Shown one piece after another: positions 25,092 to 29,595 of a stretch of 64,000 bases of DNA. The stretch is from Elusimicrobium minutum Pei191 (GTDB lineage Bacteria; Elusimicrobiota; Elusimicrobia; Elusimicrobiales; Elusimicrobiaceae): assembly GCF_000020145.1 (NCBI RefSeq), contig NC_010644.1, positions 1,240,001 to 1,304,000 of the forward strand, given 5' to 3'. The position numbers were made by a program, and so were the translations under genes. A model generated the notes under the pieces. It was given only the letters and a program-made list of their open reading frames with translations, did no database searches and was not told the DNA's origin. Numbering within the stretch: position 1 is the first letter of the stretch; the number at the start of each line of letters is the position of its first letter.

Positions 25092-27188
25092 TTAAAGCAA
25101 TACTTTGCGTGACAAGCGGACTTTGCCGTTGTTGTCAATTTCCACAACTTTAACTTCAACAATATCGCCCATTTTAAGGACATCTTCAACCTTATTAATG
25201 CGTTTTTTGTCGATTTCAGAGATGTGGAGCAAGCCGTCTTTACCGGGAATAAGCTCAACAAAAGCGCCAAAAGGCTGTATTGAAACTACTTTGCCTTTGT
25301 AGATTTTGTTAAGTTCAACTTCCGCGGTTAAAAGTTCGATTTCGGCCTTAGCCATGGCAAGTTTATCACCGTTGACCGCGGCTATCTGCACAACGCCGTC
25401 GTCATTAATATCAATTTTTGTATCCGTTGTCTCGGTAATTCTTTTGATATTTTTACCGCCGGGGCCTATTAAGGCGCCTATTTTATCTTGAGGAATCCTC
25501 ATTGTATAAATGACGGGAGCGAATTTGGAAACGTCTTTCCTGGGTTCAGGTAACACGCTGTCCATATGGTCCATAATATGCATTCTGCCTTTTGTGGCCT
25601 GCGCTACGGCTTCTTTTAATATTTCTATAGAAATACCGCCCGCTAATTTAACGTCCATCTGGAAAGCGGTTATACCGTTGCGTGAACCGGTAAGCTTAAA
25701 GTCCATATCTCCGAGGTGGTCTTCAAGGCCCATAATATCGGAAAGAACCGCGTATTTATCGCCTTCTTTAATAAGACCCATGGCAATGCCCGAGCACGCG
25801 GCTTTCATGGGAACGCCTGCGTCAAATAAGGATAAAGAACCGCCGCAAACGCTTGCCATTGAGCTTGAACCGTTTGATTCCATAATGTCGGATACAACCC
25901 TTATTGTGTAAGGAAATTTATCCGCGTCCGGAATTAAAGGTAAAAGTGCTCTTCTCGCAAGTTCGCCGTGGCCGATTTCACGTCTGCCGGGGGCTCTGTC
26001 AGGTTTACATTCGCCAGTGGAAAAACCGGGGAAGTTATAGTGAAGCATAAATGTTTCATCATAGCTTTCTTCTAAGCTTTCAACAAGCTGGGCGTCGCCC
26101 GATGTGCCTAATGTGGTAACCACTAAGCCCTGTGTCTGGCCTCTTGTAAATAAAGCCGAACCGTGCGCTCTGGGAAGTAAACCGGTGATGCTGTTAAGCT
26201 GTCTGATTTCGTCGGTCTTTCTGCCATCGACGCGAACACCTTTTTCAAGCACGAGTTTGCGGGATTCTTCATAAGAAAGATTTTCCATCGTAATACCCGC
26301 GAAGGTGGAAGCGTTATCGCCGTGGGCTTCTTTAATTTCTTCCGCGAAAGCGGCTTTAAGCTCGGCTATTTTAACGTCTCTTGTCTGCTTGTCGTAAAAA
26401 GCGTTTAAAATATTTGCGACTTCAGCTCTGTATTTATTGTTACCCAAATCAACTACATCCTGGGGAACAGTTTCCGCCTGGAAGCTGAATTTCTCTTTAC
26501 CGGCTTTTTCTTTAAGTTCAAGCTGCGCTTTGCATAAAATATCAATAGCGGGTTTGGCTGTTTCTAAAGCTTTAATAACGTCTTCTTCGGAAACTTCTTT
26601 AGCGCCGCCTTCAACCATAAGCATGCCTTCTAAAGAACCTGATATGATAAGGTCCATATCACATGATTTTTGTTCTTCTAAGGTAGGGTTGACGATAAAA
26701 TTGCCGTTAAGTCTGCCGATTCTTACCGCGGCAACAGGCGTTGTGAACGGAATAGAAGAGATAATCAAAGCCGTTGACGATGCCATTACGGCAAGAACTT
26801 CTGTATCATAAACACCATCGGCCGATAATACCATAGCGGTAACATTTGTTTCGCAGGTATAGCCTGAAGGGAACAAAGGTCTTAAAGAACGGTCAATGAT
26901 GCGGCTTGCCAAGGTTTCTTTTTTGCTGGCTCTTGATTCTCTTTTGAAAAAACCGCCGGGGATTTTACCCGCGGCGTATGTTCTTTCTTTATAATTAACG
27001 GTTAAAGGAACAAAGTCGGAAATTCCGGGTTTTTGCACTTTATCTGAAACTGCTGTGGCAAGCACCATTGTATCACCCATGCGGGCTATTACGCTGCCGT
27101 CTGCCTGTTTTGCTACCCAGCCCGTTTCCAGTGATAGAGTTTTATCTCCCACTATGACGTCTTGGGTTGTTTTATTTATATTAGACAT
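25092..27188 (-). CDS. pnp: polyribonucleotide nucleotidyltransferase (PNPase)
   Basis: A 3'-to-5' phosphorolytic exoribonuclease of 698 residues. Domains in order: first RNase PH-like domain (about 10-220), linking helical domain, second RNase PH-like domain (about 310-545, with FTRGQTQGLVVTTLGT and the catalytic region LEDHLGDMDFKLTGS), KH domain (GALIGPGGKNIKRITETT, about 560-620), and S1 domain (YKGKVVSIQPFGAFVELIPGKDGLLHISE, about 625-695). Length is typical. It is 6 nt downstream of rpsO, the classical rpsO-pnp operon. Confidence 0.98.
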   Translation of the reverse strand: MSNINKTTQDVIVGDKTLSLETGWVAKQADGSVIARMGDTMVLATAVSDKVQKPGISDFVPLTVNYKERTYAAGKIPGGFFKRESRASKKETLASRIIDRSLRPLFPSGYTCETNVTAMVLSADGVYDTEVLAVMASSTALIISSIPFTTPVAAVRIGRLNGNFIVNPTLEEQKSCDMDLIISGSLEGMLMVEGGAKEVSEEDVIKALETAKPAIDILCKAQLELKEKAGKEKFSFQAETVPQDVVDLGNNKYRAEVANILNAFYDKQTRDVKIAELKAAFAEEIKEAHGDNASTFAGITMENLSYEESRKLVLEKGVRVDGRKTDEIRQLNSITGLLPRAHGSALFTRGQTQGLVVTTLGTSGDAQLVESLEESYDETFMLHYNFPGFSTGECKPDRAPGRREIGHGELARRALLPLIPDADKFPYTIRVVSDIMESNGSSSMASVCGGSLSLFDAGVPMKAACSGIAMGLIKEGDKYAVLSDIMGLEDHLGDMDFKLTGSRNGITAFQMDVKLAGGISIEILKEAVAQATKGRMHIMDHMDSVLPEPRKDVSKFAPVIYTMRIPQDKIGALIGPGGKNIKRITETTDTKIDINDDGVVQIAAVNGDKLAMAKAEIELLTAEVELNKIYKGKVVSIQPFGAFVELIPGKDGLLHISEIDKKRINKVEDVLKMGDIVEVKVVEIDNNGKVRLSRKVLL

Positions 27189-27194
27189 TATTTA

Positions 27195-27464
27195 TTATTT
27201 CCTTAAGTTAAGTTCTTTTGTAACTTGGGTATATTTGGCGAAATCTTTTTTCTTCAAATAAGAAAGAAGTCTTTTTCTTTGGCCTACTAATTTGGTAAGA
27301 CCTCTTTCCCCGGCAAAGTCTTTCGGGTTTGCTTTGAGGTGTCCGGAAAGATATTTGATTCTTTCTGTAATGAGCGCTACTTGTACGGCCGGGCTGCCGG
27401 TGTCTGCGGCTGAAGCCTGGAATTTGCCCATAATTTCTTTTCTGTCATTTACTGATAATACCAT
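27195..27464 (-). CDS. rpsO: ribosomal protein S15
   Basis: Small-subunit protein of 89 residues that binds the 16S rRNA central domain. It carries the conserved TGSPAVQVALITERI and GLTKLVGQRKRLLSYLKKKD segments, the second being the H-x-x-D/S-x-x-S-R-R-x-L equivalent. Preceded by a long structured leader; in many bacteria S15 represses its own translation by binding such a leader. Followed by pnp after 6 nt. Confidence 0.98.
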   Translation of the reverse strand: MVLSVNDRKEIMGKFQASAADTGSPAVQVALITERIKYLSGHLKANPKDFAGERGLTKLVGQRKRLLSYLKKKDFAKYTQVTKELNLRK

Positions 27465-27595
27465 TGTTTTTCACTCTTAGGTTGACGACTGGTAGACCGA
27501 GTTTTCCCCGCTTACTTCATACTCCCAAACGGAAAACCAAGCCTAAGTCCAACCTTCTCCTTTTTTAATCTTTTATTTACTGCTTCCATATTATA
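27465..27595 (-). promoter_or_regulatory. rpsO-pnp promoter and structured leader (candidate S15 autoregulatory element)
   Basis: A -10 box TATAAT lies at 27595-27590 on the minus strand, giving a leader of about 115 nt. The leader folds into one long imperfect hairpin: GGTTG (27554-27550) with CAACC (27484-27480), GACT with AGTC, TAGGC with GTCTA, and GGTTTTCC with GGAAAACT around a ~22-nt apical loop. A competing pairing, CTTAGG (27547-27542) with CCTAAG (27481-27476), uses part of the CAACC strand and would sit next to the ribosome-binding region. This is the arrangement expected of a translational switch, but it is unlike the S15 leaders I can recall in detail. Confidence 0.55.
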
Positions 27596-27599
27596 CAAA

Positions 27600-28139
27600 T
27601 TATTTATTGGCCTTAGCGGCGGACTTCATTGCCTTTCGCTTTAAACTTCCGGCATCTTTTGTTTTTTTCTCCTTCAGGTTTTCCCAGGGCGTTTTTGTGT
27701 TTTTACCGGCCAAAATATCATCTACTTCTTTTGAAATAAGTTCTTTTTTATTTTTTTCCTGCTCATTAAGAGCTTCTGCCCACGATTTAAGCTTTTCCTG
27801 CTGCCTTTCTATTTGCAGGCGCTGGGCTTTTATTTTTTTATCGTGCTGCGCGGACATAAACTTATTAAGCTCGGCCTTAACAGCGGGTTTTTCTTTAGCA
27901 GAGGCGGTTTTATATTTTTCTTTTAAAGTTTCTATTTCTTTTTCCGCCTTATCTTTTTCTTTTCTGGATTGGGAAAAAGCGCCCATGTCAAAAGCGTCCG
28001 TAGGCGTTTTAATATCTTTGCCTGCTTCTTTGCAGGTTGTACAGTTTTCGGTTTTAGATTCTTCACAAACGCCGTCGCATGCGCAAAAAACAGGCAAAGC
28101 TAAAAACGTAAAAATAAAAACAGTTAAAAGTTTTTTCAT
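27600..28139 (-). CDS. exported coiled-coil protein of unknown function
   Basis: A 179-residue protein with a signal peptide (MKKLLTVFIFTFLALPVFCA). The mature start is cysteine-rich (CDGVCEESKTENCTTCKEA), followed by a long charged helical region (about 60-140, Lys/Glu/Gln rich, heptad-like) likely to form a coiled coil, and a basic tail. The cysteine after FCA could be lipidated, but the lipobox is poor. No family recognised. Starts 1 nt after the ComB-QueC stop, so it is probably the last gene of the rlmN-lipoprotein-queC string. Confidence 0.75.
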   Translation of the reverse strand: MKKLLTVFIFTFLALPVFCACDGVCEESKTENCTTCKEAGKDIKTPTDAFDMGAFSQSRKEKDKAEKEIETLKEKYKTASAKEKPAVKAELNKFMSAQHDKKIKAQRLQIERQQEKLKSWAEALNEQEKNKKELISKEVDDILAGKNTKTPWENLKEKKTKDAGSLKRKAMKSAAKANK

Positions 28140-28140
28140 A

Positions 28141-29595
28141 TTAATACTCCTCTCTTTCACCGGCGTCTTCAAAACCTTTGCGCCTTAATTTGCAAGATTC
28201 GCAAACTCCGCAAGGTTTTTCACCGCCGTTATAACAGGTCCAAGTCTGTTCCAAAGGAGCGCCAAGTTTGCGCCCCAATTTTACTATTTCGGCTTTATTA
28301 AGCTTTATAATAGGGGTTAAAATTTCAAATTTTTTACCAAGCCTGGTCCCCACTCTTACAGCTTCCGAAAGCGGTTTATAAAACTGCGGCGTACAGTCGG
28401 GATAGCCGGAATAATCAACCGCGTTAGGGCCTAAAACAACAGCTTCCGCACCGATACTGTCCGCCCATGAAGCGCCTAAAGAAACAAAAATCAAATTACG
28501 AGCCGGAACATATGTGGAAGGAATGCTTTTGCCTATTTGCTCCATAGGTGTAGCGGGTATTTCCGCGCCGCCTACCAAAGAAGTGGCCTCAGCAAGCCAA
28601 GGCAAATTAATTTCAATATGCTTGTGAGTAACGCCCGCCTGTTTGGCAAGACGTTGGGCTACCTCAATTTCCTTTAAATGTTTTTGCCCGTAAGCAACAC
28701 TTAAAGCATAACATTCATAACCTTCTTTTAACGCCCAATATAAGCAAACTGTTGAATCCAACCCGCCTGAAAAAAGAACAACGGCTTTCTTTTTAGAAGT
28801 TTTATTTTCTTCAACTTTAGCCGGTATTTCCCGTCTTTGAGTTATAGAAGGCATAACGGAAGAATCTATATTATTATTTACTGCTTTCATTCCCGATTCT
28901 TCTTCCCTTTTTAAAACTTTTTCTTTATTAAAAGGAGTACAGACAACCCCGTAACCGCCCATAATCTTTATAATCGGTATAACGGGAATGGAATTAACCG
29001 TAAGACAAAGCGCGGCGTCTTTAACAGCGGTTTTAGGGCCGTTTTTAATAAAATCCTCATACCTCGCGGTATTTTTTATTGTTTGGATATCCTGCTCGGT
29101 ATTTCCAAGGCCGGAAAACATTTGCATATAACTTTCCGCGCAGACGGCGTCCTCAATATCGCTGGAATGCCCGAACAGATTGGAAGGAACTATCAGAAGA
29201 TCTTCTTTTAAAGATTTTAAATAACTTGAAAGCGTGTAAATATTGCAATAACCGCCCATAAAAATTTCTTTAGCGTTTTCCAAAGACATAACCGCGGGAG
29301 TTCCAGCCGTAGTAACTATAGCACCCGGTTTTTTAGGGTTGCTTTTGCCTGCTAAAAAAGGCGAGTTGTCTTCTTTATTTACCCCTTCAATAATAAGTTC
29401 CGAAAAAAGTTCAACTTCGCTTCGCGTGTTTTTATAATGGGCCGCCAAATCTTTATCCCCGTAAACTCTTATATCCTCTTTCCCCCTGTTTACAAGAGCG
29501 CAAACGGTTGTGGAACTTCTTAAAACGTCTATAACAAGCGCGTTGCCTTCCCAATTTTCGCAGTCAAAAACTGAATTCGCGACTACAATATTCAT
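28141..29595 (-). CDS. queC: ComB (2-phosphosulfolactate phosphatase)-like domain fused to QueC (7-cyano-7-deazaguanine synthase)
   Basis: A single 484-residue reading frame with two enzyme domains. Residues about 1-225 look like the ComB family (NALVIDVLRSSTTVCALVNRG, GAIVTTAGTPAVMS, IVPSNLFGHSSDIEDAVCAE). After a polar linker (about 226-267), residues 268-484 are QueC: PP-loop LFSGGLDSTVCLYWAL, YGQKHLKEIEVA, and zinc cysteines C454, C462, C465 and C468. QueC makes preQ0 for queuosine. What the ComB part does here is unknown; coenzyme M or sulfolactate metabolism is not otherwise visible. Start overlaps the preceding lipoprotein gene by ATGA. Confidence 0.88.
   Translation of the reverse strand: MNIVVANSVFDCENWEGNALVIDVLRSSTTVCALVNRGKEDIRVYGDKDLAAHYKNTRSEVELFSELIIEGVNKEDNSPFLAGKSNPKKPGAIVTTAGTPAVMSLENAKEIFMGGYCNIYTLSSYLKSLKEDLLIVPSNLFGHSSDIEDAVCAESYMQMFSGLGNTEQDIQTIKNTARYEDFIKNGPKTAVKDAALCLTVNSIPVIPIIKIMGGYGVVCTPFNKEKVLKREEESGMKAVNNNIDSSVMPSITQRREIPAKVEENKTSKKKAVVLFSGGLDSTVCLYWALKEGYECYALSVAYGQKHLKEIEVAQRLAKQAGVTHKHIEINLPWLAEATSLVGGAEIPATPMEQIGKSIPSTYVPARNLIFVSLGASWADSIGAEAVVLGPNAVDYSGYPDCTPQFYKPLSEAVRVGTRLGKKFEILTPIIKLNKAEIVKLGRKLGAPLEQTWTCYNGGEKPCGVCESCKLRRKGFEDAGEREEY

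What the first reader, a model, noticed from the sequence alone, without database searches (positions are those of the whole stretch)
27465..27595. rpsO-pnp leader with two mutually exclusive foldings
The ~115-nt leader forms a long imperfect hairpin closed by GGTTG/CAACC. A competing pairing CTTAGG/CCTAAG shares bases with the closing strand and lies beside the ribosome-binding region. S15 autoregulates in several phyla through structurally unrelated leaders, so a new architecture here would be plausible and informative.
Basis: partly seen in the sequence, partly recalled or inferred. Interest (0 to 1): 0.6.

Follow-up and report, generated by a model that had tools for sequence, protein, structure and literature searches.

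The report
Hairpin switch before ribosomal protein S15
The messenger RNA for ribosomal protein S15 in this gut-bacterium family carries a conserved hairpin, wedged between the ribosome's docking sequence and the start codon, that very probably lets S15 shut off its own production by a design not matched by any catalogued RNA family.

Summary
The hairpin is real; the second fold is not a conserved feature. The leader of rpsO-pnp (- strand, 27560 to 27465; Elusimicrobiaceae, genome size as Elusimicrobium minutum) forms one long irregular hairpin. A covariance model finds it in 78 of 90 family genomes, in every genome of three genera where rpsO is present (77 of 77), and in 0 of 250 other phylum genomes searched. 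In 64 distinct leaders 93.5% of pair cells are kept and 14 of 22 pairs show changes on both sides.

The invariant heart is CUYGG facing CUYGG: two back-to-back GU/GC motifs, the known S15 recognition element, with U opposite C at the centre in 64 of 64. Unnoticed before: the Shine-Dalgarno GGAG lies 5' of the hairpin, the AUG 3' of it. Linear distance varies from 77 to 104 nt, looped-out spacing only from 12 to 16 nt. Best reading: an S15 autorepression operator inserted inside a split ribosome-binding site.

CTTAGG/CCTAAG is complete in 1 of 30 leaders and 9.7 kcal/mol worse. No Rfam match. S15 binding is inferred, not shown.

The parts
27590..27595 (-). -10 box TATAAT of the probable rpsO promoter; start of transcript expected about 27583-27585
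   Evidence: TANAAT 35-47 nt upstream of GGAG in 30 of 30 leaders listed; transcript start is inferred
27557..27560 (-). Shine-Dalgarno GGAG, 5' of the hairpin
   Evidence: GGAG in 64 of 64 distinct leaders; duplex with the anti-SD mean -7.49 kcal/mol against -1.96 for the 19 nt next to AUG
27479..27555 (-). conserved operator hairpin (whole)
27550..27555 (-). closing helix P1, 5' strand AGGUUG
   Evidence: covarying
27479..27484 (-). closing helix P1, 3' strand CAACCU
   Evidence: covarying
27546..27549 (-). helix P2, 5' strand GACU
   Evidence: one invariant C-G pair, 64 of 64
27487..27490 (-). helix P2, 3' strand AGUC
27537..27541 (-). core motif 1, CUUGG: half of the two back-to-back GU/GC motifs
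   Evidence: CUYGG in 64 of 64 distinct leaders
27497..27501 (-). core motif 2, CUCGG: pairs with motif 1, leaving a U opposite C centre
   Evidence: 64 of 64 distinct leaders; U opposite C in 19, C opposite U in 45
27531..27536 (-). helix P3, 5' strand UUUUCC
   Evidence: covarying
27502..27507 (-). helix P3, 3' strand GGAAAA
   Evidence: covarying
27465..27478 (-). 14-nt A-rich single strand between hairpin and AUG, without a proper Shine-Dalgarno sequence
   Evidence: 11-15 nt in 64 distinct leaders, 14 in 52; AAGTGT in 48 of 64
27195..27464 (-). rpsO, ribosomal protein S15, 89 aa
   Evidence: PF00312, E 1.3e-31
25092..27188 (-). pnp, polynucleotide phosphorylase, same operon
   Evidence: Pfam; pnp 3-12 nt after rpsO in 73 of 73 readable loci

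Best explanation
The leader is an S15 operator placed inside a split ribosome-binding site. Steps shown by comparison: (1) the mRNA folds into one irregular hairpin; (2) GGAG ends one nucleotide before the hairpin and the AUG begins 11-15 nt after it, so the fold brings a distant Shine-Dalgarno sequence to a near-constant distance from the start codon; (3) the hairpin holds an invariant core of two inverted GU/GC motifs.
For: Covariation. Specific to rpsO: one match per genome apart from G174, which has two rpsO copies; 77 of 77 searched matches end on an ATG, and S15 follows at full length in 73, the other 4 being cut by a contig end or a broken frame. Presence tracks rpsO: in genera g1-g3 77 of 77 genomes with rpsO have it. 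Core: G.U, C-G, U.G, G.U, G-C invariant in 64 of 64 while neighbouring pairs covary, as expected of a protein site. The own 16S keeps the GG/CU pairing in h22. Papers: the GU/GC motif is an S15 contact in 16S H22 and in mRNA leaders (PMC4684408, passages) and is crucial for mRNA recognition in E. coli and mycobacteria (PMC10931766, passages). Split site: anti-SD duplex -7.49 kcal/mol for upstream GGAG, -1.96 next to AUG (64 leaders), against -6.67 next to AUG in 16 relatives without the hairpin; linear distance 77-104 nt, looped-out spacing 15 nt in 52 of 64 and 12-16 in all. GGAG more than half unpaired in 47 of 64, AUG in 64 of 64, core paired in 60 of 64. S15 keeps the residues that I recall as H41 and D48 (alignment).
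Against: No binding or expression data exist here. [quoted passage not shown] S15 of this family has an altered loop 2 (NPKDFAGERGL; position recalled as S51 is G), and relatives without the hairpin share it, so protein and RNA did not change together. Fifteen nt plus the helix is longer than the usual spacing of a Shine-Dalgarno sequence, so GGAG may be a standby site. In 17 of 64 leaders GGAG is predicted mostly paired. Spacings come from an alignment fitted to the structure. Most sequences come from metagenome assemblies.
Confidence: 0.72

Rival explanations
1. S15 operator by simple occlusion: the upstream GGAG is not used for initiation with the hairpin looped out; ribosomes stand by on GGAG and slide or melt through, and S15 only stabilises the hairpin as a roadblock.
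For: Looped-out spacing of 15 nt plus helix is long; AAGUGU near the AUG is kept in 48 of 64 and could be a weak docking site.
Against: The AUG-proximal stretch pairs with the anti-SD at only -1.96 kcal/mol on average; a standby site would not need a spacing to the helix of exactly 1 nt in 64 of 64.
Confidence: 0.18
2. The hairpin is a landing or cleavage site for a nuclease (RNase III) or for PNPase, which controls stability of the rpsO-pnp message, as the leader upstream of pnp does in E. coli (recalled).
For: pnp follows rpsO in 73 of 73 readable loci, so rpsO and pnp cannot be told apart by context.
Against: RNase III sites need no invariant wobble-rich core (recalled); the element sits exactly between Shine-Dalgarno sequence and AUG of rpsO, not of pnp; the core is the known S15 motif.
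Confidence: 0.06
3. Two-state switch between GGTTG/CAACC and CTTAGG/CCTAAG.
For: The six complementary letters exist in this sequence.
Against: 1 of 30 leaders, covariation below shuffles; 9.7 kcal/mol worse.
Confidence: 0.01
4. A short leader peptide translated from GGAG (TTG start) controls rpsO.
For: A TTG lies 3-12 nt after GGAG in 41 of 64 leaders.
Against: No start codon there in 23 of 64; the 12 frames printed differ in sequence and stop position; the pattern of change is that of paired RNA.
Confidence: 0.03

Closest known systems
E. coli and mycobacterial rpsO leaders (pseudoknot operators; Rfam S15, RF00114, for E. coli; accession recalled)
   Same: In the rpsO 5' leader; a U-G/C-G (GU/GC) motif is the S15 determinant (PMC10931766 passages).
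   Different: No pseudoknot found (apical loop to tail complements 11 of 64, 7.2 expected); two inverted GU/GC motifs in one hairpin; no Rfam hit.
Thermus and Geobacillus rpsO leaders (three-way junction mimics)
   Same: Structured rpsO leader that represses initiation; Gk-mRNA also has a GU/GC motif (PMC4684408 passages).
   Different: Single unbranched hairpin.
Alphaproteobacterial rpsO leader (two hairpins, ribosome-binding site in H2; PMC4137082, parts 1-2 of section 3 read)
   Same: Putative GU/GC motif in the conserved part (PMC4684408 passages).
   Different: Here the Shine-Dalgarno sequence is outside the helix, 5' of it, and the AUG is 3' of it.
E. coli thrS operator (split ribosome-binding site; PMC3936740 passages)
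   Same: A hairpin interrupts a two-part ribosome-binding site and the ribosome can accommodate it folded; the thrS hairpin ends at -14, here 14 nt before AUG in 52 of 64.
   Different: In thrS the upstream part is a single-stranded stretch and the Shine-Dalgarno sequence is next to the AUG (recalled); here the Shine-Dalgarno sequence itself is the upstream part. Different regulator, no homology claimed.

Membership tests
S15-responsive rpsO leader (functional class) | lies in the 5' leader of rpsO | tested here: met
   77 of 77 matches end on an ATG; full S15 follows in 73, 4 are cut or frame-broken
S15-responsive rpsO leader (functional class) | conserved RNA structure supported by covariation | tested here: met
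S15-responsive rpsO leader (functional class) | mimic of the 16S GU/GC motif and/or of the three-way junction | tested here: met
   GU/GC pairing invariant in 64 of 64; no three-way junction
S15-responsive rpsO leader (functional class) | binds S15 specifically | not testable with these tools
   needs filter binding or footprinting
S15-responsive rpsO leader (functional class) | S15 lowers expression of the leader's reporter | not testable with these tools
   needs a reporter assay
E. coli-type S15 leader (Rfam RF00114) | match to the covariance model | tested here: not met
   no match at gathering score nor at E up to 10
E. coli/mycobacterial pseudoknot class | pseudoknot between hairpin loop and downstream strand | tested here: inconclusive
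   5-mer complements in 11 of 64, 7.2 expected from shuffled tails; only contiguous Watson-Crick 5-mers tested
Thermus/Geobacillus three-way junction class | branched three-helix junction | tested here: not met
   consensus has 22 pairs and no branch
Split ribosome-binding site (thrS-like) | two parts of the ribosome-binding site lie on either side of a hairpin at fixed spacing | tested here: met
   by sequence and alignment only
Split ribosome-binding site (thrS-like) | 30S initiates with the hairpin folded | not testable with these tools
   needs toeprinting or cryo-EM

The most novel reading that the evidence does not exclude
A single unbranched hairpin with two mirror-image GU/GC motifs was inserted between the Shine-Dalgarno sequence and the AUG of rpsO in the ancestor of three Elusimicrobiaceae genera. 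Folding of the operator became a requirement for initiation, because it alone brings GGAG to the AUG, and S15 turns that same bridge into the off switch; the near-symmetric core might take two S15 molecules, or one in either orientation.
Probability: 0.42. Interest if true: 0.75.

Novelty: new variant of a known kind. Interest (0 to 1): 0.6.

Why it matters
S15 leaders are the standard case of unrelated RNAs evolving to bind one protein. This would add a further phylum, Elusimicrobiota, to those described in the papers seen here, with a very compact rRNA mimic (one hairpin, two GU/GC motifs), and a traceable birth: sister genera and the sister family read here keep an ordinary Shine-Dalgarno sequence next to the AUG, while the three derived genera have it split by the operator. 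It also offers a clean test of whether a folded hairpin can bridge a ribosome-binding site.

Tried and rejected
Rejected: the CTTAGG/CCTAAG alternative. A short leader peptide. A GGAG/CUCC local alternative: CTCC lies between GGAG and motif 1 in 38 of 64 leaders, so it is not general. A pseudoknot between apical loop and tail. Co-change of S15 loop 2 with the RNA: the altered loop is also in two genera that lack the hairpin. Literature searches for Elusimicrobi with rpsO (1 paper, on mRNA decay), with structured RNA or ribosomal protein leader and with autogenous showed no listing of this element; only open-licence full texts were searched.

Rows dropped: A1 has 30 of 39 sequences (38 fetched family loci plus the window): L035 has no upstream DNA, L062, L063 and L065 (genera g4-g6) lack the element, and 5 were duplicates. 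One search used 77 of the 79 matches (G150:C97 and G174:C12 were not fetched).

Wider absence was scored with strict filters and could miss weak forms; one family genome found (G189) was lost there.

Full report
Where it is. The window is part of a single 1,643,562-base contig. That size equals Elusimicrobium minutum Pei191 from recall; the nearest relatives found by S15 bear titles such as Elusimicrobium, Ca. Avelusimicrobium and Elusimicrobiaceae. rpsO (27464-27195, -) is followed by pnp (27188-25092, -); S15 and PNPase are confirmed by Pfam. The leader is read on the - strand.

The observation. The hairpin closed by GGUUG/CAACC is the best fold with closing-pair probabilities near 1. Its energy is only moderately better than shuffles (z -2.26 for the leader alone; -0.83 with flanks). 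The competing CTTAGG/CCTAAG helix is in the letters but costs 9.7 kcal/mol.

Relatives. rpsO was found in 142 of 149 phylum genomes; 60 regions were taken. Leaders of genera g1-g3 of the same family align, and RNAalifold gives one unbranched hairpin of 22 pairs, 13 with changes on both sides. On this unfitted alignment 92.7% of cells pair and the covariation score is 0.434, against 0.195 shuffled and at most 0.145 slid.

Distribution. A covariance model (R1) matches 78 of 90 family genomes. In genera g1-g3, 77 genomes have rpsO and all 77 have the element; one further match (G140) lies in a genome without a detected rpsO, close to a contig end, where only 16 residues of a reading frame follow the leader. 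Genera g4, g5 and g6 have rpsO and no match (0 of 3). Outside the family 0 of 250 phylum genomes match (77 of 340, all in the family), with strict filters. Every matching genome has one match, apart from one (G174) with two rpsO copies. All 77 matches examined end on an ATG, with S15 at full length behind it in 73, and pnp follows in 73 of 73 readable loci.

The core. In 64 distinct leaders the pairs G.U, C-G, U.G, G.U and G-C are invariant. They are made by CUYGG facing CUYGG, with a pyrimidine mismatch at the centre that is U opposite C in 19 and C opposite U in 45, never U-U or C-C. Read from either strand this is 5'-GG facing 5'-CU, the GU/GC motif of S15. The own 16S has GGAAAUC facing GAUUUCU in h22 (numbering recalled). 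Published passages name this motif as the S15 contact in H22 and in several mRNA leaders (PMC4684408; PMC10931766; PMC5100602). Around the invariant core the helices covary, which is the pattern of a protein-binding site held in a variable stem.

The split ribosome-binding site. GGAG is present at the 5' edge in 64 of 64 distinct leaders, always one nucleotide before the first pair. The 19 nt before the AUG pair with the anti-SD at -1.96 kcal/mol on average, the upstream GGAG at -7.49, while 16 relatives without the hairpin (g4-g6 and family f2) have -6.67 next to the AUG. The linear distance from GGAG to AUG is 77-104 nt and the hairpin 62-89 nt, but the looped-out spacing is 15 nt in 52 of 64 and 12-16 nt in all (alignment fitted to the structure). 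Predicted accessibility: GGAG mostly open in 47 of 64, core formed in 60 of 64, AUG open in 64 of 64. So the operator looks inserted between Shine-Dalgarno sequence and AUG. A published precedent for a hairpin inside a split site is thrS (PMC3936740, passages).

Mechanism. Shown by comparison: structure, core, placement, distribution. Inferred: initiation with the hairpin looped out; S15 binding to the core; repression of rpsO and pnp. A standby role for GGAG is the main rival, because 15 nt is long.

Against. No binding data; no three-way junction; altered loop 2 in S15, shared with relatives that lack the hairpin; two energy-based results are weak (z-score; 17 of 64 leaders with GGAG mostly paired).

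Known or new. No Rfam family matches the window at gathering score; the region 27300-27800 gave two chance-level hits outside the leader at E up to 10; 8 relatives gave only an RNase P RNA and a tRNA, both in one locus. Papers seen describe leaders in E. coli, Thermus, Geobacillus, Alphaproteobacteria, Actinobacteria and Chlamydia (PMC4137082, section 3 parts 1-2). Searches for Elusimicrobi with rpsO, structured RNA or autogenous listed nothing on this element. I file it as a new variant of a known kind.

Noticed in passing
28141-29595 (-): One reading frame joins a 2-phosphosulfolactate phosphatase (ComB-like, PF04029, residues 16-174) to QueC (PF06508, residues 270-478): an unusual fusion with queuosine biosynthesis.
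   Followed up: partly
L057:437-782: In one relative the RNase P RNA gene lies about 80 bases upstream of the rpsO leader, on the same strand.
   Followed up: no
just downstream of the -10 box, e.g. L039, L056, L066: A small stem near the probable transcript start (such as GTACTCTAGTAC) recurs in genus g3, with different letters in g2; possibly a 5' stabiliser.
   Followed up: no
rpsO, 27195-27464 (-): S15 loop 2 reads NPKDFAGERGL in most of this family instead of the E. coli-like KKDHHSRRGL (E. coli copy recalled), in genomes with and without the leader.
   Followed up: partly
hairpin upper part, genera g1 and g2: The 3' side above P3 keeps AAGCGGGG (three g1 leaders) or a CGCGG-like stretch (g2 leaders); many g3 leaders have a GATAA-like stretch instead. 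It may be the second S15 contact.
   Followed up: no
G019 (98% complete, 7 contigs) and G063 (95%): Two nearly complete relatives show neither rpsO nor the leader: an assembly gap at this locus, or real loss.
   Followed up: no
27600-28139 (-): A lysine-rich 179-aa protein with a signal-peptide-like start and no Pfam match lies directly upstream of the leader.
   Followed up: no
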